A stretch of 28,406 nt of DNA. Origin: a virus. Shown piece after piece: positions 1,187-22,573 of the stretch (position 1 is the first letter of the stretch; the number at the start of each line of letters is the position of its first letter). Position numbers and translations under genes: made by a program. The notes under the pieces were generated by a model that searched no databases, was not told the DNA's origin, and saw nothing but the letters and a program-made list of their open reading frames with translations. The stretch covers positions 1 through 28,406 of the IMG/VR virus record IMGVR_UViG_3300008267_000303. The stretch is one strand, 5' to 3'.

Positions 1187-1474
1187 TTAGACACGCTTCT
1201 TTTTAACTTTAGTGGTAGTTGGTGTTTTTCGTGAAACAGGACTAGATTTGGTAGTAGTGGCTTGCTTAGGCACCGTACTACTAATTGGAAAATTAGGTCC
1301 ACTAATCGGAAGTTTAATATCCTTGATTGGTAGATTAGGTCCACTAATCGGAGGACTGGCATTACCAATTGGTAGATTAGGTCCACTAATCGGAGGACTG
1401 GCATTACCAATATACATGCGATTTCTTGAACCGCTAGAAGCTGTTTTAGACTTTGGTCGTTTTAGAGCTTTCAT
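1187..1474 (-). CDS. Repeat-containing hypothetical protein (95 aa)
   Basis: A basic, low-complexity protein with a Lys/Ser/Thr-rich N-terminus (MKALKRPKSKTASSGSR) and a Thr/Lys-rich C-terminus ending KVKKKRV. The middle is built from tandem 14-residue units: GNASPPISGPNLPI twice, then a diverged KDIKLPISGPNFPI. The repeat is also near-perfect in DNA. No enzymatic motif is visible. It lies between scaffold and hli, the place where capsid decoration or other structural genes are often found, so a virion surface or linker role is possible. The start ATG at 1474-1472 has no clear Shine-Dalgarno. Function not recognised. Confidence 0.65.
   Translation of the reverse strand: MKALKRPKSKTASSGSRNRMYIGNASPPISGPNLPIGNASPPISGPNLPIKDIKLPISGPNFPISSTVPKQATTTKSSPVSRKTPTTTKVKKKRV
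1329..1412. repeat. Tandem 42-bp repeat, two copies
   Basis: Two adjacent 42-base units at 1329-1370 and 1371-1412 differ at only one base, the last. Each encodes one PISGPNLPI-type module of the overlapping gene. A third, diverged unit lies at about 1284-1328 and shares the core ttaggtccactaatcgga. The length is a multiple of three, so copy number could change without shifting the frame. Confidence 0.9.
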
Positions 1475-8807: not shown

Positions 8808-10133
8808 TTAGTGAACGTCTGCCCAGGTTTGTCCGACTTTAGATTCGGCTGCGATAGGGATTCTAAGACCATAGCTCTCGCCAGCGGTGAGAGAGGATAT
8901 TTCAAGAGCTGATCGGAGCGTGTCGGCATACTCTGGGATACATTCGAATTGAAGTTCGTCGTGTACAAAGGCTAGTTGATGAGCTTCAATCTCGTTGAGC
9001 TTGATTACATTATGAGTGTGAACCATCCATAGCTTTGCTACGCAGCCCGCGCTCCCCTGGAGAAGGTAGTTAAGGGCTTTGTGGCTACCATCAACAGGGC
9101 AGCGGCGACCGTCACACAACTGTATGTAACCAGATTCCGCCTTGGACTTAACCGCAGTAACCAGTTTCTCAAGTCCTGGAATTGCATCCATGTAAGCTTG
9201 ACGGATCTCTTTACCCTTTGCAGTTGCATCTTTGTCAGAAAGTTGTGGATCATAACTTAGACCTATCTTCTTATCGCCAGCTCCGTACAAAAAGGCATAC
9301 GTTACAGTCTTGACTAGCCGCCTCGATATGCCTATCTTGTCGGCGTTCTCTTGGTGTATATCACCGTTGAGAAGTACGTCTCCGTACCTGCCTCCATCAT
9401 ATCGAGCCAGATAGTGTGCGAGCATTCGTAATTCAATGCCTGCGAGATCAGCACCAACCATGACATACCCAGGAGTAGCACGGAATAGTTTTCTAAATTC
9501 AAGATCACTGGGTACCTGTGCAAGGTTTGGGTTTCTGTGAGCGCATCTAAAAGTGTTAGTGGCTACAGAGCAGTGGTGGTGTAGTCGATTGTTTCTTACA
9601 AGTTTAAGCCAGGCATTGTTGCCTTCAGACACCATACCGAGATGTTTAGTTAACTCAAGGCAACGAAAGAACTGCAGAGATTCCTCTGTGCCTATGTCCT
9701 TGAGAACTGTCTCATCAATAGCCGTCTTACCAGCTTTTGTCTTCTTGTCAGGTTCCCAACCGTGTAGCTTCTCCATCACCCATGCGATGTGATCTCTACT
9801 GGTTGGAGAGAACTCGATCAGTTTTGTACAGGGTGCTCCTTCGACGTATCCGAGGGATCGGTTAACTCGCTTCGGAGTAAACTCGCGTCCTGCGACGTAA
9901 GGATACCTGTTTCGTAGTACTGTTTTAAGAGTCTCAAGCTCAGTATAGAGAGTTTGTGCAAGTTCCCGTGCAGCATCCTCATCAAAGTACCATCCATATA
10001 ATTCCTGATCAGTAAGTATTTGTGCGACCTGATGCTCTAACGAGATCCATTCAGGTACGGTTGAAAGTGTTTCCAAAGTTTCGTAGTAACAACAACATCT
10101 TGTACCATGTAGTCTTGCATCTCCTGCGACCAC
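8808..10133 (-). CDS. DNA polymerase, family A polymerase domain (T7 gp5 C-terminal part)
   Basis: The 441-residue frame contains the family A palm and fingers motifs: motif A VGADLAGIELRMLAH (Asp229 to Arg236), the O-helix motif B RRLVKTVTYAFLYGAG (271-286, with Lys275), and motif C FVHDELQFE (His391-Asp392-Glu393). TNTFRCAHRNPNLAQVP matches the T7 RATHAFPNLAQIP region. The first 26 or so residues (to ETLSTV) look unlike a polymerase and overlap the exonuclease gene in another frame. Homology to T7 gp5 appears from PEWISLEHQVAQIL on. The listed start is a GTG with weak support. The simplest reading is one T7-type polymerase gene broken by a missing base at about 10040-10080, or a genuinely split enzyme. 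Confidence 0.92.
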   Translation of the reverse strand: MVAGDARLHGTRCCCYYETLETLSTVPEWISLEHQVAQILTDQELYGWYFDEDAARELAQTLYTELETLKTVLRNRYPYVAGREFTPKRVNRSLGYVEGAPCTKLIEFSPTSRDHIAWVMEKLHGWEPDKKTKAGKTAIDETVLKDIGTEESLQFFRCLELTKHLGMVSEGNNAWLKLVRNNRLHHHCSVATNTFRCAHRNPNLAQVPSDLEFRKLFRATPGYVMVGADLAGIELRMLAHYLARYDGGRYGDVLLNGDIHQENADKIGISRRLVKTVTYAFLYGAGDKKIGLSYDPQLSDKDATAKGKEIRQAYMDAIPGLEKLVTAVKSKAESGYIQLCDGRRCPVDGSHKALNYLLQGSAGCVAKLWMVHTHNVIKLNEIEAHQLAFVHDELQFECIPEYADTLRSALEISSLTAGESYGLRIPIAAESKVGQTWADVH

Positions 10134-10555
10134 TCTTTCCAGTCTGATGTCTTACCGAATGAGCCCTTGTACTCACCGAGGCGGTACCCATAAGACTCCA
10201 AAGAATGCCTACCATAAAGCTGCAATGGCATGTTCTTCCACTTACGTTTACCGTCAATACTCAATATGTCAGGGTGACAAACGCGACTAAGCACCAGAGT
10301 ATCAAGAACCCTACCCACATTGGTAAACCAAGGATAGAGTTTGCGGATAACAGGGATATCGTAATTGATAATGTTATGACCCACAATCTCACTTGCATCT
10401 TCAAGGCGTTGAATACCGCGACTAAGGGGTTCAGTATCACCTTCGTCGTTGTATACAAGCATCTGTTTAGCTTCCGTATCGTAGATAGCCAAACAGTGGA
10501 TGCGGGTAACATCATACAGAAGTCCGTTTGTTTCTAAGTCAAAGATAAGCGTCAT
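10037..10555 (-). CDS. DNA polymerase 3'-5' exonuclease domain (T7 gp5 N-terminal part)
   Basis: The 172-residue frame matches the N-terminal proofreading domain of T7 gp5. It begins MTLIFDLETNGLLYDVTRIH, with the Exo I acidic pair Asp6 and Glu8. It then has VGHNIINYDIPVI (Exo II) and, near the C-terminus, SLESYGYRLGEYKGSF and MQDYMVQDVVVTTKLW (Exo III). It ends shortly after HFQPYL, where T7 gp5 continues into the polymerase part, which is found here in the next frame. A -1 shift or one restored base joins them into about 590 residues, near the T7 gp5 length (704) allowing for a shorter linker. In T7 this domain proofreads; as a separate chain it would have to associate with the polymerase. 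Confidence 0.92.
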   Translation of the reverse strand: MTLIFDLETNGLLYDVTRIHCLAIYDTEAKQMLVYNDEGDTEPLSRGIQRLEDASEIVGHNIINYDIPVIRKLYPWFTNVGRVLDTLVLSRVCHPDILSIDGKRKWKNMPLQLYGRHSLESYGYRLGEYKGSFGKTSDWKEWSQEMQDYMVQDVVVTTKLWKHFQPYLNGSR

Positions 10556-12916: not shown

Positions 12917-13482
12917 TAGAAGTCGTCGTCCTCAACTGCGTCGTTGATGATTACGTTAGGCTCAGATGCTTTGAAACCTTTAGTCTGACCAAAGAGAGCT
13001 GCCACTTCAGTTTCACCAAGATCGCCTGTATCAACACCAGCAGAGGAGCCGACAGTGATGACTTGGATTCCGACAAGTTTAAGACTTGTACCGTAGGTGA
13101 CGCCATCACGCAGGATGTAGGGTTTCTGTCGGAATGCAAGCTTAACTGTGCTACCACTGTAGAGTGGGGTATTCGGATCAGTGATGACTGTTCCCTCAGT
13201 ATCCACCACGGGCGGCTTAGTCTCTTCATTCCAGCTGAACTTAACTTTGTACTTACCATCTGAAACCTCTTCCCAAGGTTCAGGCTTAAGGGTAGAGCGC
13301 TTTGGATTCTTAAGCTTAGACTCTGCCCATTTAATAGAATCAGCTCGATCTTCTTCCAGCTTATCGACAAGATCTTGATCGACAATAGCAGAAAGTGAAT
13401 AGCCAAACTTACTTGGCTTCAGTACAGCTTGATAACCTTCAAGGACAACAGGCTGTTGGGTAACGTGGATGGATTGTGCCAT
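12916..13482 (-). CDS. Single-stranded DNA-binding protein, T7 gp2.5-like
   Basis: Start ATG at 13482-13480 overlaps the RNA polymerase stop by one base (TAATG), giving 188 residues beginning MAQSIHVTQQPVVLEG. The body reads as an OB-fold-like beta protein (KYKVKFSWNEETKPPVVDTE, LYSGSTVKLAFRQKPYILRD). The C-terminus is acidic and ends in Phe (NDAVEDDDF), the hallmark of gp2.5 SSBs, where the tail contacts polymerase and helicase. Position between RNA polymerase and endonuclease I fits T7 order (1, 2.5, 3). An in-frame TTG two codons upstream is unlikely to be the start. Confidence 0.92.
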   Translation of the reverse strand: MAQSIHVTQQPVVLEGYQAVLKPSKFGYSLSAIVDQDLVDKLEEDRADSIKWAESKLKNPKRSTLKPEPWEEVSDGKYKVKFSWNEETKPPVVDTEGTVITDPNTPLYSGSTVKLAFRQKPYILRDGVTYGTSLKLVGIQVITVGSSAGVDTGDLGETEVAALFGQTKGFKASEPNVIINDAVEDDDF

Positions 13483-15821
13483 TAACAAAAGAAATAGGTG
13501 GATTCAATTACGGATTCCGGTTCAAGGTCTCCGACAATCGGTGGTTCGGTCTCTGCCCCTATGTGAGAGGCAAAGTCCCGCAGGTAATCGTGCTCGGCAA
13601 AGAGATGCATGTAGGTTTCTCGTACAATGGAGGATAAGGTAGACATGTCCGTTGCACGACAAAGCACAGAATCATGGATAAGAGCAATAGGTGCGTCAAA
13701 GCGTAGGGTGCTTAAATGTAGTAGGCTAGCATCTAGACTATGTATCAGATTAGGTGCTGTTGCATTCTTGTGATGGTTGAGATCAACCTCATCTGAATCA
13801 TCAACGGCAACCTGCATCCTACAGCGACCAAGTAACTGTAAGGCTAGTTCAACTACTAACTTTTTATTGAGCTTTTGATGTACAACAAAACCAGATGGTG
13901 TTGTCCACTCAAGATATTCTTTACCAGCTTTGATTGCATTAGCAACTTCTTGCTCAATCCAACTCATGACAGCCATAGGACCAGGTACGACAACATCCAT
14001 GGCATTGCGTACAGCCTTAACTGTTTTAGTTAGGTCATCCTTACTAATCTCTACACCTTTCTCGGCTAGTGCGTCTCTGATGTACCCACGATTAGAGAAA
14101 GGTTTAGCATTGTAAGGAACGGTCATAACGACCCTTTTGACAGTTTTTCTATCCATGTATGGTTGGATAGACTCAGGACAATGAGGCGTAGCTTCTTGAG
14201 CTACTACCTTATATGCATCCTGTGGCTTATCACCAGGTAGGACATTCACTAGACGTGCAGTGGACTTATCCCTAGCTAATCCTGCAAGGATTTGTAATCC
14301 TGAACAGGTTGCATCGGTTGCCACCATTAATCGTGTGAATTGCCTATCAGCAATTACGACACAATGGTAATACTCTTCAGCAGCAGCTAAGAACTGCCAA
14401 GGTTCCTCAACTCCCTCCCATAAAGGTAGATTACCAATTGGATCTGTCGCTATGAGTGTGAACAATTCATGGTTATCTTTCGCCCATTCTAGTCGCTCAG
14501 ACATCGGTGCTTTATCAAGACCGAATGTAGTAGCTACTTGAAAGGCTAACCAAGATTCAGCTTCAGGAGTTACATAAGACCCATCAGCAAAGACTAAAAG
14601 ACTTTTTCCAAAGTCTGTATCTTGAGGAGTAAGAAAGGCAGGAATAGGATAAGCTCTACCTCTATAGTCAAAAGACCAAGGAATGTAGAACTTAGCTACG
14701 TCCTTGAACCTCTTCACTGCCTCCATTGTCATCCGAGTACGACAAGATTTCTTAAACTCTTGTGCATTCAGATTCATTACCTCTGCCGCTGCTCTTCGAT
14801 ATGCTTTACGAGAATCTTTATTCTCTGCAATATCAAATGGCTTTGGTGGTAACTCATGGTTCACAATAGGGAGGAACTTACCAACAGCTCGTTCCAATCT
14901 ATCTAGTTCTTCCGCTACCTCCACAATAAATGGATTTAGAGTGAAGGCAACCTTCTGAATCTTGTTCAGAAAGTTGATTGGTGTCTCTCCCTGTATACGG
15001 CGGTTATCGCCCCTACGTACCATGTCATGCCCCCTCATCACCTCATTGAGGAGGTAGCCACCAGCTCGATCATTGGTCCAATCATTAGGCTCGATCAACA
15101 TCGGCCAAGCAAGCGGAGCAAACAACTCTGCATCAGCCATCACCTTATCTTTGATGGCAATGAATTCAGGTGTAGGTATGACATATGTGACAGTACGCTT
15201 ACCTTCACGACGTAAGTCTTTGGTGAACCAGCCTGATGATTCAATAATACAATCAAGCAACCATGCACCTAACCTGATGCGGTTTGCTCTGCCCCATGTT
15301 TGCCATTGTTGAATATCACTACGGTTCATCAATGTTTGAATGACCGTGAGTCGCTGATCAGTACCACATGACTTATGCCAGTAGTTTTTCTTTAGTGTTT
15401 CAAGAAGACCAGGGGCACATCTCTCGTAGTGACGCATCTGACACTCAGCTTCTACAGCTGAACCGATACCATCACATACCGCTTGTACTTGATCACTACC
15501 TTCCTTGTAGCTGAATACCTTATCGAAGGTAAGTTTGAGTGCAATAGCAGCAGCAGCTAGAGGCTCTAGTTGACTGATGTACTGAGAGATCTCTTTGAAT
15601 GCAACACCATTCTTACCTTCATGTATTCGGTTGTTAGTATCCTCTAGACGCTTCACTAATACAGGTAGAAGTACATCTATGGATGCAATGCCATACACCG
15701 TAGCAGAGGCATAGCTACGCTGCTGCAGTGCGTCTGTGTTATCTCGTAATCGCTTGAGACCTTGACGTATTTGATCACGCTCAAGCTGCACCTGTTCATC
15801 AATCTGAGCAGGTGTAGGCAT
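13482..15821 (-). CDS. DNA-dependent RNA polymerase, single-subunit T7 type
   Basis: The 779-residue product (T7 RNAP: 883) has the family motifs: motif A ATDATCSGLQ with catalytic Asp503, the O-helix region VKRVVMTVPYNAKPFSNRGY with Lys562 and Tyr570 (T7 Lys631 and Tyr639), and motif C ALIHDSVLC with Asp717 (T7 Asp812). FYIPWSFDYRGRAYPIP matches the conserved DxRGR palm segment. The C-terminus ends YFFC, similar in place to the T7 FAFA foot. It transcribes the middle and late phage genes. It is translationally coupled to the 38-aa gene upstream (TGATG overlap) and to SSB downstream. The segment encoding RRGDNRRIQGE contains the 21-base sequence repeated after terL. Confidence 0.97.
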   Translation of the reverse strand: MPTPAQIDEQVQLERDQIRQGLKRLRDNTDALQQRSYASATVYGIASIDVLLPVLVKRLEDTNNRIHEGKNGVAFKEISQYISQLEPLAAAAIALKLTFDKVFSYKEGSDQVQAVCDGIGSAVEAECQMRHYERCAPGLLETLKKNYWHKSCGTDQRLTVIQTLMNRSDIQQWQTWGRANRIRLGAWLLDCIIESSGWFTKDLRREGKRTVTYVIPTPEFIAIKDKVMADAELFAPLAWPMLIEPNDWTNDRAGGYLLNEVMRGHDMVRRGDNRRIQGETPINFLNKIQKVAFTLNPFIVEVAEELDRLERAVGKFLPIVNHELPPKPFDIAENKDSRKAYRRAAAEVMNLNAQEFKKSCRTRMTMEAVKRFKDVAKFYIPWSFDYRGRAYPIPAFLTPQDTDFGKSLLVFADGSYVTPEAESWLAFQVATTFGLDKAPMSERLEWAKDNHELFTLIATDPIGNLPLWEGVEEPWQFLAAAEEYYHCVVIADRQFTRLMVATDATCSGLQILAGLARDKSTARLVNVLPGDKPQDAYKVVAQEATPHCPESIQPYMDRKTVKRVVMTVPYNAKPFSNRGYIRDALAEKGVEISKDDLTKTVKAVRNAMDVVVPGPMAVMSWIEQEVANAIKAGKEYLEWTTPSGFVVHQKLNKKLVVELALQLLGRCRMQVAVDDSDEVDLNHHKNATAPNLIHSLDASLLHLSTLRFDAPIALIHDSVLCRATDMSTLSSIVRETYMHLFAEHDYLRDFASHIGAETEPPIVGDLEPESVIESTYFFC
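14989..15009 (-). promoter_or_regulatory. 21-base repeat copy 1, candidate phage RNAP promoter within the RNAP gene
   Basis: These 21 bases are identical to 20819-20839 on the same strand. Read on the minus strand the element ends GTATACAGGG and is followed here by AGAGAC, so it resembles the initiating end of T7 promoters (TATAGGGAGA). It lies inside the RNA polymerase coding frame, where it encodes part of NRRIQG, so coding constraint could explain this copy alone. The second, non-coding copy makes a regulatory role more likely. Confidence 0.45.
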
Positions 15822-15937
15822 CAGTTATCCTCCACATTGAGTGGTACCTCTACCTCATCAACACATACAAGTTGTGCAAGCTCAGGATACTGCTCACTGA
15901 ACTCTTCGTTGAACTGTTCAATAGTAATGATGCTCAT
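15821..15937 (-). CDS. Tiny acidic early protein (38 aa) just before RNAP
   Basis: ATG at 15937-15935 overlaps the preceding stop (ATGA) and its own TGA overlaps the RNAP ATG (TGATG), so it is clearly coupled to both. It reads MSIITIEQFNEEFSEQYPEL followed by AQLVCVDEVEVPLNVEDN. It is strongly acidic, with no membrane segment. Small acidic early proteins often inhibit host enzymes, but nothing here identifies a target. Confidence 0.78.
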   Translation of the reverse strand: MSIITIEQFNEEFSEQYPELAQLVCVDEVEVPLNVEDN

Positions 15938-16251
15938 CAGAAGTCTCGGTCAGGTGGAATAAGAAGATGGATAGAGTCATGATCGCAGACAACAAACTCG
16001 CTATCTGCGTCAGACATTAGCTCGTTGACTTTACGCTGAGCTGCTGCACGTTGACGATAGACATGCTCACTGATCTTACGAGTCTTAGGATCAGTAACAC
16101 GAATGATACACACTACAGAAGATGGTAGCTCCCAACCAGCTACCTTCCACGACATAACTTCCTCAAAGGTATGAGGCTCGAACATCTCATCAGGTGCGTC
16201 CTTGTACTCTTGCCAGTTGTTGTCAAAGTACTTTTGCTTCTTACCACTCAT
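15937..16251 (-). CDS. Early hypothetical protein (104 aa)
   Basis: The product begins MSGKKQKYFDNNWQEYKDAP, then FEEVMSWKVAGWELPSSVVC, a beta-rich middle (IIRVTDPKTRKISEHVYR), a helix (QRAAAQRKVNELM) and a C-terminal strand VVCDHDSIHLLIPP. The stop overlaps the next gene's ATG (ATGA), and the start lies inside the preceding 54-aa gene. No family recognised. Its place in the chain of overlapping small genes ahead of RNA polymerase marks it as early. Confidence 0.78.
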   Translation of the reverse strand: MSGKKQKYFDNNWQEYKDAPDEMFEPHTFEEVMSWKVAGWELPSSVVCIIRVTDPKTRKISEHVYRQRAAAQRKVNELMSDADSEFVVCDHDSIHLLIPPDRDF

Positions 16252-16405
16252 CAGTTTGCCTCACATTTAACAATTGATCGTTACGTTCACGGGACAACTC
16301 TAAAGCCTTCCATGCGGCTTGCTCAGAGTCGGGTGCTAGTAAATACCAAACACCTGAACGAAGGGTGATCTCGTATTCACGAAGACCTTTGTAAGTTGTG
16401 TACAT
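16241..16405 (-). CDS. Early small protein (54 aa)
   Basis: ATG at 16405-16403 gives MYTTYKGLREYEITLRSGVW, then YLLAPDSEQAAWKALELSRE and a polar tail ending QTDEW. The beta-strand plus helix pattern (LRSGVWYLLAPDSEQAAWKAL) looks like a real compact fold. It overlaps the next gene by 11 bases. The leader ahead of the ATG carries the ACTTAACG and CTTTGTTTATT elements shared with other early genes, and no Shine-Dalgarno. Confidence 0.72.
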   Translation of the reverse strand: MYTTYKGLREYEITLRSGVWYLLAPDSEQAAWKALELSRERNDQLLNVRQTDEW

Positions 16406-16536
16406 TTGTCGTTAAGTGAATAAACAAAGAGGCCAAATGTGTAGCCACAAGTATACACAAAGGCGATACTTGCAGCCACTATGAGTGTGAAAAACTGTAG
16501 GTATTGTCCTACAAGTATATCACTTGGCAGCTTCAT
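16336..16536 (-). CDS. Small membrane protein, early (66 aa)
   Basis: ATG at 16536-16534 is preceded by a strong AAGGAGG at 7 bases, which decides the start over upstream in-frame candidates. The product begins MKLPSDILVGQYLQFFTLIV, with a transmembrane segment of about residues 9-33 (FFTLIVAASIAFVYTCGYTF), then a polar tail ending VQVFGIY. It overlaps the preceding gene by 17 bases and the following 54-aa gene by 70 bases in another frame, so one of the two overlapping genes may not be translated. It could affect the host membrane early in infection; function unknown. Confidence 0.6.
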   Translation of the reverse strand: MKLPSDILVGQYLQFFTLIVAASIAFVYTCGYTFGLFVYSLNDKCTQLTKVFVNTRSPFVQVFGIY

Positions 16537-16801
16537 TGGTATCCTCCTTAAGGTATTCAGTGAGTGCGTCTTTGATCTCATTCAGGTTGCGAAGCTGATG
16601 ATCACATAGACGTGCCTTGTTTGTGTTCTTAAAGTCAACAGCAAAGAAGTTACGAGCAAGGCGAATCATGTCATCTACACTTGCACCATAGATCTCGATC
16701 TGTTCATCATCAGTAGTGTAGAAGTTGAACGAATCATCACCAAAGCAATAGCTAACATGAGCAATGTCAGCGTGGATGGTGTAGTTAGTTGAGAGTTTCA
16801 T
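16520..16801 (-). CDS. Early hypothetical protein (93 aa)
   Basis: The product begins MKLSTNYTIHADIAHVSYCF, with DDEQIEIYGASVDDMIRLAR in the middle, and ends in an acidic helix (LNEIKDALTEYLKEDTNEA). It is acidic and soluble. It starts three bases after the stop of the 101-aa gene and carries, within its last codons, the Shine-Dalgarno of the membrane protein gene. No family recognised. Confidence 0.75.
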   Translation of the reverse strand: MKLSTNYTIHADIAHVSYCFGDDSFNFYTTDDEQIEIYGASVDDMIRLARNFFAVDFKNTNKARLCDHQLRNLNEIKDALTEYLKEDTNEAAK

Positions 16802-16804
16802 TAT

Positions 16805-17110
16805 TTAATACGATTGTGTTTGGGTGAGAATGAACAGAAGCTCAAGACCAGGAGGTTGTACTACATCATACTCATCTAGCTCAGCTGGAACGTATACAGC
16901 ACGTAGTCCTCCACTTTCAACAGTTGTACGCTTATCCCAAGCTTCATTCAAACGCTGCTGAGCAGAGAGAATCAATTGAACAATGCTTGGTACTTTTAAG
17001 CCACCACATGTATACCATTTCCACTCTACTTGTTTCATCACTTCATGAACACGTTCAAAGTTAAACGTATTGAGACAGTATTCGACTGCTACTTTCTTGT
17101 GATCAGTCAT
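16805..17110 (-). CDS. Early hypothetical protein (101 aa)
   Basis: The product begins MTDHKKVAVEYCLNTFNFER, then KQVEWKWYTCGGLKVPSIVQ, a helix (LILSAQQRLNEAWDK) and a C-terminal strand region (GLRAVYVPAELDEYD, GLELLFILTQ). The alternation of strands and helices suggests a folded soluble domain. The start follows the 54-aa gene's stop by two bases. I do not recognise the family. Confidence 0.77.
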   Translation of the reverse strand: MTDHKKVAVEYCLNTFNFERVHEVMKQVEWKWYTCGGLKVPSIVQLILSAQQRLNEAWDKRTTVESGGLRAVYVPAELDEYDVVQPPGLELLFILTQTQSY

Positions 17111-17112
17111 AA

Positions 17113-17277
17113 TCAGATGTCGTCAAAGGTGAAGTAAGTGTCAATCTCATTCATCACTCGTTGAGTGAATCGCTCAACAAGGTAATCCTCATTAGCAGTT
17201 AAGTCTTCATTAACTACACCACCAATGACTCCTCGTTCGATACACTCTTCAAGCAATCTATACAGTTTGACTTTCAT
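17113..17277 (-). CDS. Early small protein (54 aa)
   Basis: ATG at 17277-17275 overlaps the stop of the small membrane gene upstream (ATGA). The product reads MKVKLYRLLEECIERGVIGG, then VVNEDLTANEDYLVERFTQR and an acidic end (FTFDDI). It is a likely helical, acidic protein. Function unknown. Confidence 0.72.
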   Translation of the reverse strand: MKVKLYRLLEECIERGVIGGVVNEDLTANEDYLVERFTQRVMNEIDTYFTFDDI

Positions 17278-17390
17278 TTAATACGCTTCTCATAACGTGT
17301 AACAGCAGTGTTAGCTCGACTGTAAACAGCAAGCGTAGCAAGTAAGCCAATGCTACCAATGATAGCAAGGATGATGTTGGATTCAGTCAT
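17274..17390 (-). CDS. Tiny single-pass membrane protein (38 aa)
   Basis: The product is MTESNIILAIIGSIGLLATL followed by AVYSRANTAVTRYEKRIK. A transmembrane helix spans about residues 6-23, with a basic C-terminal tail that would stay in the cytoplasm. It starts directly after the stop of the 17391 gene and overlaps the next gene by four bases. Function unknown. Confidence 0.7.
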   Translation of the reverse strand: MTESNIILAIIGSIGLLATLAVYSRANTAVTRYEKRIK

Positions 17391-17951
17391 TCAGTTATTC
17401 CAAAAGAAGTAAGTGCCATTGCTAGTCTCAATGGTGTTGAAGTCATAGCGTAGGTTGTGATCCCACACCTGCTGCCAATCTACAGCATGTGCAATGGTCT
17501 CGTTAGGTGCTTCACACATAACTTCACATACCCAATACTCGGCAAACTCTTTCTCTGCCCAATACTCATCAGACGCATAGCAGAATGCATCCTCAAACTC
17601 ACTGAATGTAGTGATACCAAGATCATCTAACTCATCAATGAATTCCATGATCTCTTCATGATCCCACTTCTCACCAAGTCGATCATGTACAGCATCATAC
17701 AAATCCTTGGTGTCAGTATCAAGCTCTTCATATTGTGCATCCTCAGCTTCTTGCTTAGATACATATGAAGGGTCAAGTTGTTCTTTAGCTTTCAACAATT
17801 CAGTGTAGAAGTCAACAAATTGAGGTTTACCGTTGTCATAGACATAGCCAGAGTCAATTACTAGCTGCGTCCTTGAGACATGATCACTATGTTCGTTTAC
17901 ATAGTCAATTAGTTGCTGACCAGTGTAACGAACTGGAGCACAAGTAGTCAC
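17391..17951 (-). CDS. Acidic early protein (about 186 aa), start uncertain
   Basis: A strongly acidic protein containing YTGQQLIDYVNEHSDHVSR, QFVDFYTELLKAKEQLDPSY, many Asp/Glu pairs in the middle (EDAQYEELDTDTKDLYDAVH) and a Trp-rich C-terminus (YFFWNN). The overall charge suggests a DNA mimic or an inhibitor of a host protein, but that is inference. I use the GTG at 17951-17949, because the extra 19 residues from the ATG at 18008 are encoded by a leader resembling the untranslated leader of the 18606 gene. The ATG form would add a hydrophobic N-terminus (MWVFCSLQGYLLSLCLLL). Confidence 0.7.
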   Translation of the reverse strand: MTTCAPVRYTGQQLIDYVNEHSDHVSRTQLVIDSGYVYDNGKPQFVDFYTELLKAKEQLDPSYVSKQEAEDAQYEELDTDTKDLYDAVHDRLGEKWDHEEIMEFIDELDDLGITTFSEFEDAFCYASDEYWAEKEFAEYWVCEVMCEAPNETIAHAVDWQQVWDHNLRYDFNTIETSNGTYFFWNN

Positions 17952-18001
17952 GTTAAGTAACAAACAAAGGGACAAAAGGTAGCCTTGAAGACTACAGAAA
18001 A

Positions 18002-18017
18002 CCCACATATGTGAGGG
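18002..18017 (-). promoter_or_regulatory. Hairpin ahead of the 186-aa early gene
   Basis: CACATATGTG at 18004-18013 is a perfect palindrome flanked by CCC/GGG-type bases. On the minus strand it is followed by TTTTCTGTAG, so it is a weak terminator or attenuator candidate. The same hairpin-then-TTTCTGTAG arrangement occurs at 18653-18672. Confidence 0.35.
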
Positions 18018-18054
18018 CTAAGTGTAGCCATCTTGCGATGAGTGTGAATGTTAG

Positions 18055-18165
18055 TTACTCATAATCACCATCAAGTTGTGAGAGAAAGTCATAGTAATCT
18101 GTTGGCCACATCTCACGTGCTAACCAACAAGAGAACAACTCAAATGCAAAGGTTACATCAATCAT
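18055..18165 (-). CDS. Tiny acidic early protein (36 aa)
   Basis: ATG at 18165-18163 overlaps the previous gene by 8 bases. The product is MIDVTFAFELFSCWLAREMW followed by PTDYYDFLSQLDGDYE. It is rich in aromatic and acidic residues. It is supported mainly by its tight fit in the gene chain, so confidence is moderate. Function unknown. Confidence 0.5.
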   Translation of the reverse strand: MIDVTFAFELFSCWLAREMWPTDYYDFLSQLDGDYE

Positions 18166-18319
18166 GGTTGTTGATAGGATAAACATCAAAGACTTGTTCA
18201 GGGTATACTGCTTTGCAGTCACCCATTACCCATGCTTCCTTATATGAGTCAGCATGTACATACTCCGTGGCACACACAGGTGTGTTGTAACCACGGTTAT
18301 AGTTAACTTGGTAAAGCAT
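18158..18319 (-). CDS. Early small protein (53 aa)
   Basis: ATG at 18319-18317 lies two bases after the stop of the 94-aa gene. The product reads MLYQVNYNRGYNTPVCATEY, then VHADSYKEAWVMGDCKAVYP and ends VFDVYPINNHD. It looks like a small beta-rich protein. The leader (TGTCGTTTGTTTGATT before the ATG) resembles that of the 18606 gene. Function unknown. Confidence 0.65.
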   Translation of the reverse strand: MLYQVNYNRGYNTPVCATEYVHADSYKEAWVMGDCKAVYPEQVFDVYPINNHD

Positions 18320-18321
18320 AA

Positions 18322-18606
18322 TCAAACAAACGACATTGAAGGGAGAACTTGTACACCTACTGCATCCTGACTGAATGCATTCTTGTAAGCGTTAGCCACG
18401 TCCTTGATCTTGTCTGCACATGCAGTGCATACTGTCACAAGTAACGTAGGCTCATGCTCACCTTTCCATACACCTTGGACGTGTTGTATTGTGTAACCTT
18501 CGAAGGCTACATCTAACACACCCTCAATGAATGCACGAAGGTTGAGATCACTAACGTAACCACCGTTAGGTATGTTACGACCAAAGAACAATTGATAGGT
18601 TTGCAT
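18322..18606 (-). CDS. Early hypothetical protein (94 aa)
   Basis: I take the ATG at 18606, giving MQTYQLFFGRNIPNGGYVSD, then LRAFIEGVLDVAFEGYTIQH, QGVWKGEHEPTLLVTVC and NAYKNAFSQDAVGVQVLP. The strand-helix-strand plan (FFGRNIP, QGVWKGE) resembles short conserved phage and bacterial proteins of unknown function. The 18 residues upstream of this ATG in the same frame lack coding character and contain the 18653-18672 hairpin, so I exclude them. Confidence 0.77.
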   Translation of the reverse strand: MQTYQLFFGRNIPNGGYVSDLNLRAFIEGVLDVAFEGYTIQHVQGVWKGEHEPTLLVTVCTACADKIKDVANAYKNAFSQDAVGVQVLPSMSFV

Positions 18607-18652
18607 AACACAAAGTAAACGACAATGTGTAGCGTTAAGTAAGCTACAGAAA

Positions 18653-18672
18653 CCCATCATCTATGTGATGGG
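18653..18672 (-). terminator. Hairpin with short T tract, possible attenuator
   Basis: CCCATCA (18653-18659) and TGATGGG (18666-18672) form a perfect 7-bp stem with a 6-base loop. On the minus strand it is followed by TTTCTG. It lies between the KTSC-like gene and the 94-aa gene. The T tract is short, so it may only partly stop transcription. Confidence 0.45.
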
Positions 18673-18695
18673 AGAGTGTAACTAACAGGTAACGA

Positions 18696-18935
18696 TCAAG
18701 CGTAGTTCAGTGAGCACTCAAAGGTACGCTTAGCGTTGACAAGGTTCTCATTAACCCAGAAACCTAGGCTCATGTTCTTGTTAGCAAGCAGGTTGAGAAT
18801 AGCACGACGGCTTACGTTGAGGTAAGCGTAGCTGTACCCATTCTTGAATACGACACAAGCAGTGCCACGGGCAGGATCAACAAGCAGACAATCGATAGCA
18901 CCGGAAGTACGGTTGGTAACGTTGAAGCTGAACAT
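18696..18935 (-). CDS. Small KTSC-like protein, first early gene
   Basis: The ATG at 18935 gives a 79-residue product beginning MFSFNVTNRTSGAIDCLLVD. Its pattern, a Ser-Gly-Ala-Ile start followed by ARGTACVVFKNGYSYAYLNV and then a helix (RRAILNLLANKNMSLGFWVN), resembles the KTSC domain by eye (SSAI...F.nG..Y.Y..V...L..S.G..FN). KTSC proteins are small and of unclear function. The upstream in-frame part (MLFFTCLI) has no coding support. This is the first gene after the long gene-free stretch, so it is probably transcribed from the sigma70-like promoter near 19.2 kb. Confidence 0.68.
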   Translation of the reverse strand: MFSFNVTNRTSGAIDCLLVDPARGTACVVFKNGYSYAYLNVSRRAILNLLANKNMSLGFWVNENLVNAKRTFECSLNYA

Positions 18936-19184
18936 AATTAAACAAGTGAAGAACAGCACTCCTGAGTATCGCTTTCACCTCAGACGAATGCATGAAACCC
19001 ATGAGCAAACTTGTATACCGCATGTGGGTCTGCGGTTACTGGTGACACCCTTCTCGGCGTGGCACGGCTGGCACATTGAGTGTACCCTAACCCACACTAC
19101 CGGAACCCGCTCGGCAGTTGTGGCGGCAGTGACCCGTGGTCATACTCAGCCTTGGCTATTGAGTTTTCGAGGTTCGATGCTCTC

Positions 19185-19213
19185 ACCATAGCATGGCTGG
19201 AGCGGTTTGTCAA
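19185..19213 (-). promoter_or_regulatory. Sigma70-type early promoter
   Basis: On the minus strand, TTGACA (19213-19208, perfect -35) is followed after exactly 17 bases by TATGGT (19190-19185, 4 of 6 matches to the -10). Transcription would head for the early gene cluster, whose first start is about 250 bases downstream. This fits early transcription by host RNA polymerase in T7-like phages. Confidence 0.65.
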
Positions 19214-19308
19214 GGAGTGGTGGTCGGCTTGTCAGGTGGCACAGTGCCAAGGACTGCTTGCCGTATTCAGTTGGCTTGGTCTCTCATCTCTTCTGGTTGA
19301 AGTTTCGA

Positions 19309-19337
19309 GACTCTCCTCACCCTTAACAGGGAGAGTC
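19309..19337. repeat. Inverted repeat in the gene-free region
   Basis: GACTCTCC at 19309-19316 and GGAGAGTC at 19330-19337 form an 8-bp stem around a 13-base loop. No T-run follows on the minus strand. It lies about 95 bases upstream of the sigma70-type -35 element; role unknown. Confidence 0.55.
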
Positions 19338-19778
19338 GAGATACTCTCAACATCAAAGAAGAGTATGGGTAGAGCCTAGCAGCTCAGAGCAGTGGACAGT
19401 GATGCTAAGTGGCACATAGTACAGCTTGATCCCTGTTGTTGCAGCGGTTATCAGTGTTGCTTATGGTACAGTGTATTGCTGAGATCCATTGGTATGACTG
19501 GGTTCTCAATAACGTTCTCAATAGGCTCTACAGATGTTTGAGATGTGGTTATGCGTGGTGCCGCATAGTTGCTGCTGCCTCGTGTGTGCATGTGCCTACG
19601 CGCCTAGCCCTGTCCAGCGTACCTGTGCCTGATGCAGATGCTCTGGACATGGACATACATGTGCGTGCGTGAACATAAACGCGCGTGCGCCTGCCTGCGC
19701 CTGTGTGCATCCGGGGGTACCCCTATGGGGGGTTGCGTCGCTGCTTCAGCGTAGGATAAGGCTTGAGAAATTTTAGTC

Positions 19779-19818
19779 AAAAACTAAAGCCCCTTCAGAA
19801 TGACCTGTAAGAGGCTTT
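19779..19818 (-). terminator. Intrinsic terminator after thyX
   Basis: On the minus strand AAAGCCTCTT (19818-19809) pairs with AAGGGGCTTT (19795-19786) with one G-T wobble, forming a 10-bp stem with a 13-base loop. It is followed by AGTTTTTG. It lies 100 bases after the thyX stop and would end rightward late transcription at the genome end. Confidence 0.8.
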
Positions 19819-19917
19819 AAATGCTCAACATGTGCAACGACACCTGACACTACCCAAAGACCCCATACAGAGCCTTCTAGCCACCTCTCATGAAGCGTTT
19901 AGCCTCATTTAATCGCT

Positions 19918-20556
19918 TCATTCCTTATCCCACATTGCTTTACACACATTAGGCAAGAATTGATACAATAAATCCTGCACTTGACCTGCTATCTGTGCGT
20001 GTTCTTTCTGCGTACCATGACCAGTCCTCAGATCACAATAATGCAACCAAGACCTGATTGTACCATTCATATACAACTTAGTAGGAGCTGCCATTGGCAA
20101 CACTTCTCTTGCACATTCTTTAGCCACACCAGCTGCTACCAGTTCTTTGTAGAGACCATAACAATCAGAATACAGAGATCCTATACGAAATTGAAAGTTT
20201 TTCTTTACTACTTCATCTAGGTCATCAATACTATTCTGTCTATTCTTGGTATCTTGTCTACGTAGTTCTGGGATACCAGCTACTTTCTCTACCGTTGCAT
20301 ACCGTTGACTAAACTCTTGAAAGCTGAAACTCCTATGCCTAAGGATTTGTGCTGCAATACTCCTTGTTGTCTCAATAGATACACACATGTTCACCATTTC
20401 AAATGGAGACCAGTGTTGATGATCAATAAGATACTTAATCAGTTTAGCACTTGTCTGAGTGTTTGATTGATTAGAAGGATTAGAGACTCTTGCCATGTAA
20501 GCGATGAGATCTTCTGCATCAGGAGTGATGTGTACTAGGGTAGCGGTATGGGTCAT
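19918..20556 (-). CDS. thyX: FAD-dependent thymidylate synthase ThyX
   Basis: The 212-residue protein has the ThyX signature RHRX7S: RHRSFSFQEFSQRY at residues 73-86, with Ser83 at the conserved place. Other family features are HWSPFEMVNMCVSIETTRSI before the motif, REVLPMAAPTKLYMNGTIRS (substrate-binding Arg and the LP...T region) and WLHYCDLRTG. ThyX makes dTMP from dUMP using methylene-tetrahydrofolate and reduced FAD, feeding the dNTP pool together with the phage reductase. The length is usual for phage ThyX. It stands between two strong terminators, away from the other nucleotide genes, so its transcription must start between 20557 and about 20840 or read through. Confidence 0.96.
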   Translation of the reverse strand: MTHTATLVHITPDAEDLIAYMARVSNPSNQSNTQTSAKLIKYLIDHQHWSPFEMVNMCVSIETTRSIAAQILRHRSFSFQEFSQRYATVEKVAGIPELRRQDTKNRQNSIDDLDEVVKKNFQFRIGSLYSDCYGLYKELVAAGVAKECAREVLPMAAPTKLYMNGTIRSWLHYCDLRTGHGTQKEHAQIAGQVQDLLYQFLPNVCKAMWDKE

Positions 20557-20749
20557 AAATGGTGGTGGTAGTTGATTTCTTAATAACTGTCATTTATTAA
20601 ATTACTTAATACTGATGCATACAGTAGTATCAGTAGTGACAGGATTCAGAAGGATGGAGAGAATCAGTACTCACTGGATTCAGTTAGTAGAGTAGATGAA
20701 TGAACTAAGAGGGAGATCTTTGTCTTTTGTTCCCTCACTGTTCATTAAA

Positions 20750-20789
20750 GAAAAGGGAAAGATTGTCTCGTTAGAGACGTGTCTTTCCC
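20750..20789 (-). terminator. Strong intrinsic terminator after terL
   Basis: On the minus strand GGGAAAGA (20789-20782) pairs with TCTTTCCC (20762-20755), enclosing a second stem GTCTC/GAGAC (20778-20774 with 20769-20765) capped by a TAAC loop. TTTTCTTT follows. The compound stem and T-run make this the clearest terminator in the window, equivalent in position to the end of the late transcript. Confidence 0.88.
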
Positions 20790-20818
20790 TCCCAGGAGTC
20801 GGGTCCACCCTTCCCTTC

Positions 20819-20839
20819 CCCTGTATACGGCGGTTATCG
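20819..20839 (-). promoter_or_regulatory. 21-base repeat copy 2, candidate right-end phage promoter
   Basis: Exact copy of 14989-15009, here outside any convincing gene, starting 3 bases after the terL stop. On the minus strand it ends GTATACAGGG then GAAGGG, so a purine-rich start follows as in T7 promoters. In T7 a late promoter (phiOR) lies near the right end and helps packaging. Transcription from here would meet the 20750-20789 terminator after about 30-70 bases. Confidence 0.5.
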
Positions 20840-20842
20840 GTC

Positions 20843-22573
20843 TTAAACCCAGGTGGGGACTGACTTTTTACCTTCAAGCATTCTTGCTTGTCTACGTTGG
20901 TCTAAATTAAAGCCAAATGCCATATGATTAGCTGCTGATTGAGGGTCATCTAACCAAGCTTCTTGAAGATCATTCCAGTCTTCTTGTCTACGTTGTTTAA
21001 TTGTTTCATGAGCACTAATTGCTAGTGCATCTGTGAAGTATTTAACACCTTGAGCTAGGCAATCGAGTCTATCGTCGTGTTTAACTGCGCCTTTTTCACG
21101 ACACATGCGACTCATCTGATAGAATAGCATGTATAGGAGTCGTGTCTCTGGCGCTGCGTCTTTATTAGAGTTAAAGTCCCACTCAATAACTGCTCTATTA
21201 ACAATTAATTTATGTTGATTAAAGACTGGTTCAAGTGTATCAATGATTCGGTCTTCTTTACGGACGTTAGCACGTACTTCTTCAATGTCAATAGCTTGTT
21301 TAGTTTGTTGAAGGTGTTTACGGAATAGTTCTGCTACAATACCATCACCAAAGTTTGTCTCAATGAGGAGTTTAGTGACACCAAACTTTTTACAACCTCT
21401 AAGAATGTCTAACAGTGTAGCATCACTGTAACCATCATTATAAGCACGTACTTCATGAAGGTAGATAAAGCCATTACGTTGACTGAGGAAACAAGCTGCT
21501 GTTTCATCAGTACCTCTACCTGATGGGTCTACTGAGCAGATAGTTTCAGTGTATGGTAACCAATCACCTTGCATGATCTGTGGTGAGTAGAAGTAATCAC
21601 CAGGCAGACCAACTGTTGGTAGGTCTTTAATAACGTTAGATGGGTCTGAACACCAGACAACAGCATCAGGACATTCCTTAGGGTTAACTGCTGTAACAAT
21701 TAGGTCTGCCATCTTAAGTGGGAACTTCTCAGCGTCACTAAGACTAGTGTCTAGCATGAACTGCAACATAAAGTTGCTACGACCCATTGATGCTTCACGT
21801 TCTACTAGATCATCATTAGAGAAACGATCAGGGTCTGTTACATCCCAAAGTTCAGCACCTGCTTCTATGTCTTCTTGTATTTGAGGAGCAAGGAGACCTT
21901 CATAGTTAGATAGCTTACGAGGGTAACGTGCTGGCCAGACAAAAGGTTTGTAGTTACGTTCCGCTAGTTTGCGGTAGATGGTGAAGGTTGTCTGCGGTGT
22001 CCCTAGGTACATAATGCGTGAGTCCTTCTTGGGTGTGAGGATGGACTCCGCTTCTGTACAGAGTTGAAGAAGTTTTTCTCGCATCATCTCAGTCATCGAG
22101 TTACCAGGAACTTCGATGTCATCAAGAATCATCAGGTCTGCACGGCTACCAGTTAGCTGACCTGTGATTCCGACTGACTTGACTGAGGGTGCTTGGTGAG
22201 GAGAGCAATTAACGTCAAAGGAGATCCGAGACCACCGGGCATCATCACTCTTTGGTCTCAAATGTGATAGCCATGGTGTCTCAATAATTAGCTTCTGAAG
22301 AAAGATGGACATGTTATCTGCACGCTCTTTTGAAGCGGAGATGATCATGATCTTCTTTTCGGGGTTGTTAAAGAGTGTCCACAACACAAAGGCACCAGTA
22401 ATCCAGCTCTTACCTACCCCTCGAAATGCTTGAATCTGTAGTCGTTTAGGACCGTGTTGCAGGTAGTCTGCGATGGCGTATTGAGCACGGGTAGGTGAAG
22501 GTAGATCTAACTGTTGCCATAACGCTTGAAGAAAGATCTTAAAATCGCCTTTAAGGGCATCTAAAACATTCAT
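20843..22573 (-). CDS. Terminase large subunit (DNA maturase B), T7 gp19-like
   Basis: The 576-residue product (T7 gp19: 586) has the packaging ATPase motifs Walker A AFRGVGKS at 49-56 and Walker B LMILDDIE at 147-154 with catalytic Glu. It has a C-terminal RNase H-like nuclease domain with the first Asp in ICSVDPSGRGTDETAACF and a later DRLDCLAQG. LIETNFGDGIVAEL matches the middle nuclease motif region. It drives DNA into the procapsid and cuts concatemers at the terminal repeat. The gene is 69 bases downstream of the 343-aa gene, with a hairpin between them. It is the last of the packaging genes, followed by a terminator and thyX. Confidence 0.96.
   Translation of the reverse strand: MNVLDALKGDFKIFLQALWQQLDLPSPTRAQYAIADYLQHGPKRLQIQAFRGVGKSWITGAFVLWTLFNNPEKKIMIISASKERADNMSIFLQKLIIETPWLSHLRPKSDDARWSRISFDVNCSPHQAPSVKSVGITGQLTGSRADLMILDDIEVPGNSMTEMMREKLLQLCTEAESILTPKKDSRIMYLGTPQTTFTIYRKLAERNYKPFVWPARYPRKLSNYEGLLAPQIQEDIEAGAELWDVTDPDRFSNDDLVEREASMGRSNFMLQFMLDTSLSDAEKFPLKMADLIVTAVNPKECPDAVVWCSDPSNVIKDLPTVGLPGDYFYSPQIMQGDWLPYTETICSVDPSGRGTDETAACFLSQRNGFIYLHEVRAYNDGYSDATLLDILRGCKKFGVTKLLIETNFGDGIVAELFRKHLQQTKQAIDIEEVRANVRKEDRIIDTLEPVFNQHKLIVNRAVIEWDFNSNKDAAPETRLLYMLFYQMSRMCREKGAVKHDDRLDCLAQGVKYFTDALAISAHETIKQRRQEDWNDLQEAWLDDPQSAANHMAFGFNLDQRRQARMLEGKKSVPTWV

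What the first reader, a model, noticed from the sequence alone, without database searches (positions are those of the whole stretch)
14989..20839. Exact 21-base repeat: in the RNAP gene and right after terL
Seen: 14989-15009 and 20819-20839 are identical over 21 bases on the same strand. The minus-strand form ends GTATACAGGG and runs into purines (AGAGAC or GAAGGG), like the start of T7 promoters (TATAGGGAGA). A 21-base match by chance in 28 kb is very unlikely. Inference: phage RNAP promoters, the second corresponding to the T7 right-end promoter used in replication and packaging. Alternatively, recent copying from the RNAP gene.
Basis: partly seen in the sequence, partly recalled or inferred. 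Interest (0 to 1): 0.62.

Follow-up and report, generated by a model that had tools for sequence, protein, structure and literature searches.

The report
Paired phage RNA polymerase promoters
The 21-base repeat is the pair of start signals read by this cyanobacterial virus's own RNA polymerase, one hidden inside the polymerase gene and one just after the DNA-packaging gene, and comparison of over a hundred relatives shows the two signals and the polymerase changing together.

Summary
The repeat is real (14989-15009 and 20819-20839, same strand, 21/21) and not chance: the longest repeat in 200 shuffles was 17. The window is a T7-like cyanophage fragment. Both copies are very probably promoters for the phage's single-subunit RNA polymerase (RNAP), in the layout known for cyanophage Syn5: one inside the RNAP gene, one just 3' of terL. 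Copy 1 lies on exactly the codons that carry Syn5's proven promoter. In 63 of 65 relatives a matching pair sits at these two places. Its sequence differs between phages but agrees within each, over exactly -15 to -1, the length of Syn5's 15-bp promoter. Across 126 RNAPs, promoter bases covary with residues in the three DNA-reading elements known from T7 RNAP (18 of the 20 strongest pairs; control windows at most 6). The resulting residue-to-base rules, learned without Syn5, give Syn5's proven promoter correctly at all six positions covered, and agree with this window's own repeat at five. A near-complete relative has only these two copies, as in Syn5. Beyond the finding: the right-end transcript would begin with a conserved, covarying hairpin (loop AAGGGTGGA) followed by a terminator-like stem, a candidate undescribed small RNA.

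The parts
14995..15009 (-). Promoter 1 core, -15 to -1 (CGATAACCGCCGTAT), inside the RNAP gene; predicted +1 = 14994, repeat runs on to +6 = 14989
   Evidence: Exact repeat; homologous codon position to Syn5's proven promoter; within-genome identity spans exactly -15..-1 in relatives
20825..20839 (-). Promoter 2 core, -15 to -1, identical, right after terL; predicted +1 = 20824, repeat runs on to +6 = 20819
   Evidence: Exact repeat; a matching box in 63 of 65 relatives, median 6 nt after the terL end; synteny with T7 phiOR
13482..15821 (-). Single-subunit (T7-type) RNA polymerase, 779 aa, the predicted reader of both promoters
   Evidence: Pfam RNA_pol and RPOL_N; 85% identical to Synechococcus phage S-CBP4 RNAP
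14997..15008 (-). RNAP codons 272-275, fully inside promoter 1: a hypervariable patch in a conserved segment
   Evidence: Commonest residue only 36-51% at 272-275 against 91-100% at most neighbours
15576..15635 (-). RNAP residues 63-82, equivalent of the T7 AT-rich recognition loop region (about T7 89-106)
   Evidence: Covaries with promoter -15, -14, -12
15177..15290 (-). RNAP residues 178-215, including the equivalent of the T7 intercalating hairpin (T7 230-245)
   Evidence: Residue 210 covaries with -5 and residue 178 with -4, without exception among 126 sequences
13776..13871 (-). RNAP residues 651-682, equivalent of the T7 specificity loop (739-772)
   Evidence: Residues 660, 666, 668 covary with -10/-11, -9 and -8/-7
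20843..22573 (-). Terminase large subunit (terL)
   Evidence: Pfam Terminase-T7_RNaseH-like; 95% identical to the S-CBP4 terminase
20793..20823 (-). 5' hairpin of the predicted right-end RNA (+2..+32), conserved loop AAGGGTGGA
   Evidence: Same loop in 52 of 63 relatives and a variant loop (AGTGGTG) in 7 more; compensatory changes; the covariance model hits only this place, once per genome
20753..20791 (-). Second stem-loop (+34..+72) with U-rich tail (20745-20752), terminator-like
   Evidence: -19.8 kcal/mol; 100-nt fold z = -3.5; similar element in 58 of 63 relatives (loose scan; 28% of controls) or 32 of 63 (strict scan; 2 of 62 controls)
19918..20556 (-). thyX (ThyX-type thymidylate synthase), next gene downstream of promoter 2
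   Evidence: Pfam Thy1; the same place in S-CBP4, Syn5 and others

Best explanation
The two copies are the promoters of the phage-encoded single-subunit RNAP. Each is a 15-bp core (-15 to -1, CGATAACCGCCGTAT) followed by a purine-rich start (A at +1, then CAGGG). The RNAP, first made from early transcripts of the host polymerase (inferred from T7), binds the core with its AT-rich loop (-15/-14), specificity loop (-11 to -7) and intercalating hairpin (-6/-5). From promoter 1 it would transcribe the whole replication, structure and packaging block. That transcript starts inside the RNAP gene, so it cannot make intact RNAP (inferred). From promoter 2, after terL, it would transcribe towards the right genome end, as T7 phiOR does. 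The two copies stay identical because one enzyme must read both; when its reading residues change, both copies follow. Shown here: sequence, position, concerted change, covariation. Inferred: actual transcription starts, roles of the two transcripts.
For: (1) Syn5's proven 15-bp promoter ATTGGGCACCCGTAA (PMC3950665) is found here in the Syn5 record inside the RNAP gene and 6 nt after terL, as a 20-bp repeat. Its start and this window's predicted start fall on the same base, the third base of the codon before an almost invariant Q and an invariant G. (2) In 63 of 65 distinct genomes a 25-nt box at that RNAP site matches one near the 3' end of terL; a later look found a partner for one of the other two, 346 nt after terL (14/15). 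Re-searched cores match their own right end at 13.8/15 on average against 9.4/15 for other genomes' right ends. (3) Within-genome identity is high over -15..-1 (0.71-1.00), with weak residual similarity at -18..-16 and background at +2; between-genome identity is 0.27-0.79. (4) 18 of the 20 strongest RNAP-promoter covariations lie in T7's three recognition elements, which hold 13% of variable columns; 33 control windows of the same gene gave at most 6. Using only the right-end copy, 16 of 20 (53 genomes). (5) Near-exact rules: residue 210 T/S to -5 C 68/68 and R/K to -5 T 58/58; residue 178 R to -4 G 97/97. On a tree without these columns, 23 independent pairs for -5 and 14 for -4 all agree. 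(6) Rules learned without Syn5 give Syn5's promoter correctly by all 7 applicable rules, six positions. This window's residues E68, R178, T210, R666, R668 fit its own C-15, G-4, C-5, C-9, C-8. (7) Only two copies in a near-complete 44,895-base relative, up to 3 mismatches. (8) Conserved RNA hairpin starting at the predicted right-end +1.
Against: No transcript data. The +1 is set by homology with Syn5; relative to T7, the residue equivalent to R756 reads -8/-7 here and not -9, a one-base shift. A few relatives have weak right-end matches (L186, L144) or a third copy (7B11-B, S-B28, S-CBP2). Rules from the main clade do less well on some distant phages (P60 2 of 7, S-CBP42 5 of 8). The JBC paper that mapped the Syn5 promoters is not in the held library.
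Confidence: 0.95

Rival explanations
1. The repeat is a recent copy (gene conversion or misrepair) of a bit of the RNAP gene with no function.
For: One copy lies in coding sequence; both are identical.
Against: The pair recurs at the same two places in 63 of 65 genomes with different sequences; identity stops at -15 and +1, where random copied tracts would have varied ends; the bases covary with distant RNAP residues.
Confidence: 0.02
2. The repeat is a binding or cutting site for another phage factor (terminase, endonuclease, replication initiator, integrase) and not a promoter.
For: The second copy is near the genome end, where packaging signals lie; phage endonuclease and integrase genes are common in the group.
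Against: Covariation points to RNAP recognition elements; Syn5's copies of the same element are promoters in vitro (PMC3950665).
Confidence: 0.03
3. The repeat is a promoter, but the right-end copy is kept mainly as a replication or packaging signal or for a small RNA, and not to express thyX.
For: Conserved 5' hairpin and a terminator-like stem ending near +72, ahead of thyX; by established knowledge T7 phiOR serves replication and packaging.
Against: Nothing here measures read-through; the T7 terminator did not stop Syn5 RNAP (PMC3950665), so the stem may not stop this enzyme. This is a refinement of the best explanation and not an exclusive rival.
Confidence: 0.4

Closest known systems
Syn5 RNAP promoters (Synechococcus phage Syn5; PMC3950665)
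   Same: 15-bp core; one copy inside the RNAP gene at the homologous codons; one right after terL; two per genome; +1 on the same codon base
   Different: Core sequence differs (ATTGGGCACCCGTAA against CGATAACCGCCGTAT); start is A and not G; RNAPs only 37% identical
T7 phiOR and phi1.1A/B promoters
   Same: phiOR lies just after terL on the same strand; phi1.1A/B lie at the RNAP gene; purine-rich initial transcript
   Different: T7 has 17 promoters of one consensus (PMC6171733); its first ones lie after and not inside the RNAP gene; the upstream sequence is not shared
Two-copy elements of P-SSP7, S-CBP4, P60 and other cyanopodoviruses (found here, not annotated as promoters in their records)
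   Same: Same two positions, same length and extent
   Different: Each phage has its own sequence: 97 distinct cores among 126 RNAP genes

Membership tests
Syn5-type single-subunit RNAP promoter pair | One copy inside the RNAP gene at the homologous site | tested here: met
   Same codon base as Syn5 +1
Syn5-type single-subunit RNAP promoter pair | Second copy near the right genome end, after terL, same direction | tested here: met
   20819-20839, just past the terL stop; Syn5 copy 6 nt after terL
Syn5-type single-subunit RNAP promoter pair | Only two promoters in the genome | tested here: met
   Two copies in the window and in a near-complete relative, up to 3 mismatches
Syn5-type single-subunit RNAP promoter pair | 15-bp element | tested here: met
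   Concerted identity spans -15..-1 across 63 genomes
Syn5-type single-subunit RNAP promoter pair | Recognised by the phage's own RNAP, start mapped | not testable with these tools
   Only indirect: covariation with RNAP recognition residues
T7 phiOR | Downstream of terL, same strand, reading towards the right end | tested here: met
   T7 phiOR 99 nt after terL; here 4 nt after the terL ORF
T7 phiOR | T7 promoter consensus | tested here: not met
   CGATAACCGCCGTATACAGGG shares only a TATA and purine-run likeness with the T7 site TAATACGACTCACTATAGGGAGA
T7 phiOR | Role in replication and packaging | not testable with these tools
   No functional data
Rfam RNA families (for the right-end hairpin RNA) | Match at gathering score | tested here: not met
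   Only sub-threshold microRNA matches

The most novel reading that the evidence does not exclude
The right-end promoter makes a short (about 75 nt) structured RNA with a conserved 5' hairpin loop, an undescribed non-coding RNA of cyanopodoviruses that acts in genome-end processing, packaging or replication (working like, not related to, the phi29 packaging RNA), while the RNAP and its two promoters drift together so fast that most lineages have their own private promoter.
Probability: 0.15. Interest if true: 0.85.

Novelty: new member of a known kind. Interest (0 to 1): 0.6.

Why it matters
How a polymerase and its promoters change specificity together is hard to study in T7, where 17 promoters must follow; laboratory evolution left some of them unchanged (PMC6171733). 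Here the network is two sites, one inside the polymerase gene itself. Nature has run the experiment at least 23 independent times at one position. That gives a readable residue-to-base code, many probably orthogonal RNAP-promoter pairs for synthetic biology, a way to annotate late promoters in uncultured cyanophages from sequence alone, and a candidate new RNA at the genome end. In the papers searched I found no report of the family-wide pattern; the library is incomplete.

Tried and rejected
Chance repeat: rejected. Looking for many T7-style copies upstream of late genes: none in the window or in a near-complete relative. Gene conversion without function: rejected by covariation and by the sharp borders. 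Linkage (promoter lies in the RNAP gene) as the cause of covariation: rejected, because the covarying residues are far away in the gene, codons 267-279 were left out, control windows of the same gene do not show it, and the right-end copy, about 6 kb away, repeats it. Shared ancestry as the cause: tested on a tree without the recognition columns. Hypergeometric enrichment using the specificity loop alone was weak (p = 0.02), because the hits spread over three elements. RNAalifold on the long, gappy right-end alignment found no structure; the gapless subset gave clear covariation. A first terminator scan missed odd-length stems and was redone. The JBC 2013 Syn5 paper could not be read. T7's own phiOR transcript start shows no such loop.
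Full report
OBSERVATION. CCCTGTATACGGCGGTTATCG occurs at 14989-15009 and 20819-20839 on the same strand and nowhere else in the window. Dinucleotide-preserving shuffles of the window gave longest repeats of 13-17 (200 shuffles); the only longer repeat in the window is a tandem array near 1292-1411. On the minus strand, which codes for nearly all genes here, the element reads CGATAACCGCCGTATACAGGG.

CONTEXT. The window is an IMG/VR fragment of a T7-like cyanophage. Its RNAP is 85% identical to that of Synechococcus phage S-CBP4. On the minus strand the order is tail genes, terL, copy 2, thyX, early genes, RNAP (with copy 1 inside), then ssb, endonuclease, primase/helicase, DNA polymerase and so on. 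The contig therefore runs across the joined genome ends, which explains how a 'right-end' element lies upstream of the RNAP gene here.

THE SYN5 PRECEDENT. Syn5 RNAP reads a 15-bp promoter, ATTGGGCACCCGTAA; the genome has two, and one lies in the RNAP gene (PMC3950665). From memory, the original JBC 2013 abstract puts the other near the right end; that paper is not held, so I located both in the Syn5 record. The longest repeat between the RNAP gene and the rest of Syn5 is ATTGGGCACCCGTAAGCAAG, inside the RNAP gene and 6 nt after terL. Aligned at codon level, Syn5's +1 G and the window's A of ACAGGG are the same base: the third base of the codon before Q277-G278 (window numbering; Q almost invariant, G invariant). 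The 21-mer is then 15 nt of core plus +1..+6.

GENERALITY. In the 25 isolate records (some are two versions of one phage), the best or nearly best exact repeat between the RNAP gene and the rest of the genome falls in most cases at this RNAP site and just past terL, with a different sequence in each lineage. With IMG/VR relatives added, 65 distinct genomes had both places; 63 show a matching 25-nt box with at least 16 matches, median offset 6 nt and at most 79 nt after the terL end. One of the two others has its partner 346 nt after terL (14/15). When cores are searched afresh against every genome's right end, own matches average 13.8/15 and others 9.4/15, so choosing the best match does not explain it. 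Position by position, within-genome identity is 0.71-1.00 over -15..-1, falls to 0.38-0.57 at -18..-16, and equals the between-genome level at +2. That is the extent of the Syn5 promoter.

COVARIATION WITH THE POLYMERASE. For 126 RNAPs of the main clade (under 97% identical to each other), mutual information with average-product correction was computed between the 15 core positions and all variable RNAP columns, leaving out the codons inside the promoter. Of the 20 strongest pairs, 18 fall in the equivalents of T7's AT-rich loop, intercalating hairpin and specificity loop, which hold 13% of the variable columns; 33 control windows of the same gene gave 0-6 (mean 2.4). Order along the promoter follows T7: -15/-14 with T7 positions 90-97, -11/-10 with 748, -9 with 754/746, -8/-7 with 756, -5 with 240 and 233, -4 with 206. 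T7's own contacts are N748 to -10/-11, R756 to -9, Q758 to -8 (PMC5937735), so the register agrees within one base. Rules are close to exact: residue 210 T/S goes with -5 C (68/68) and R/K with -5 T (58/58); residue 178 R with -4 G (97/97); residue 660 E with -10 C (56/57) and Q/N with -10 A (17/17); residue 668 E/D with -8 G (30/31) and Q/N with -8 T (24/25). The right-end copy alone (53 genomes) gives the same top pairs.

RELATEDNESS. On a FastTree tree built without the recognition columns, the residue-210 class and the -5 base each change 31 times, and 23 independent pairs on well supported branches all go the same way (sign test p = 2e-7); for residue 178 and -4, 14 of 14. Leaving out relatives above 85% identity, residue 210 predicts -5 in 126/126 genomes (the nearest remaining relative gets 79), and residue 668 predicts -8 in 108/122 (nearest relative 34). 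Applied to the distant Syn5 clade, which was not used for training, all 7 applicable rules give Syn5's proven bases (-15 A, -10 G, -8 A, -7 C, -5 C by two rules, -4 G). SS120-1 scores 8 of 8; P60 (2 of 7), S-CBP42 (5 of 8), S-TIP28 (3 of 5) and S-CBP2 (3 of 4) do less well (my count from the table), so the code drifts with distance. This window fits at five positions: E68/C-15, R666/C-9, R668/C-8, T210/C-5, R178/G-4.

A SIDE EFFECT ON THE PROTEIN. RNAP residues 272-275, fully inside promoter 1, are hypervariable (commonest residue 36-51%) in an otherwise conserved stretch. The simplest reading (inference) is that the DNA code dictates this patch and the protein tolerates it.

HOW IT WORKS (inference beyond this point). 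Early genes and RNAP are first transcribed by the host enzyme, as in T7. The phage RNAP then starts at promoter 1 and makes one very long late transcript; Syn5 RNAP makes over 37 kb from a single promoter (PMC3950665). Starting inside its own gene, this transcript cannot make intact RNAP, which would limit its amount. Promoter 2 lies where T7 has phiOR (99 nt after terL) and reads to the genome end. Only two copies exist in a 44,895-base relative with an identical RNAP protein, even at 3 mismatches, and in most isolates.

THE RIGHT-END RNA. The predicted right-end transcript of the window folds into two strong stems (100 nt, z = -3.5). The first starts at +2 and has the loop AAGGGTGGA. 52 of 63 relatives carry GGGTGGA at +10 to +16 in such a hairpin, and 7 more (Syn5 clade and P-SSP10) carry the loop AGTGGTG. 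On a gapless alignment of 29 distinct sequences the stem is 93.1% paired (shuffled 80.7%), with 32 double-change cells (shuffled 7.9; 0 of 500 shuffles reach it). About 26 of the paired cells are G-U, which would be unpaired on the other strand, so selection seems to act on an RNA of this strand. A covariance model finds it once per genome and only at this place in 1.17 Mb; Rfam has no family for it. A second stem with a U-rich tail ends near +72: 58 of 63 relatives by a loose scan (28% of controls inside terL) and 32 of 63 by a strict one (2 of 62 controls). It may be a terminator; T7's terminator does not stop Syn5 RNAP, so this is open. The stem starting exactly at +1/+2 is independent support for the predicted start.

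VERDICT. The single finding is a new member of a known kind. The family-wide concerted change, the residue-to-base code and the right-end RNA are, as far as the searched papers show, not described, but the held library lacks many journals.

Noticed in passing
window 20745-20823 (minus): Conserved hairpin (loop AAGGGTGGA) starting at the predicted right-end transcript start, followed by a terminator-like stem: candidate undescribed small RNA of cyanopodoviruses.
   Followed up: partly
L012 and L014 (7B11-B, S-B28) about 1.3 kb after terL; L026 (S-CBP2) at 16388 within the ribonucleotide reductase gene: Third near-copies of the promoter core in three isolates, the only clear exceptions to two per genome.
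   Followed up: no
L009, L027, L028, L029, L030, right-end RNA after the first hairpin: Syn5-clade phages share a further conserved stretch, TGTGGAT(T)TGCGGTGA, right after the 5' hairpin.
   Followed up: no
window 10555..10037 and 10133..8808: DNA polymerase is split into two overlapping ORFs (exonuclease and polymerase parts), as annotated in P-SSP7 and S-TIP37; split gene or programmed frameshift.
   Followed up: no
window 1292-1411: Tandem array with a 42-nt period inside a small ORF (repeats of PPISGPNLPIGNAS) between psbA and the portal gene.
   Followed up: no
window 18959-19918: About 1 kb with no convincing gene between thyX and the early genes; the genome ends or terminal repeat probably lie here, so the contig crosses joined ends.
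   Followed up: no
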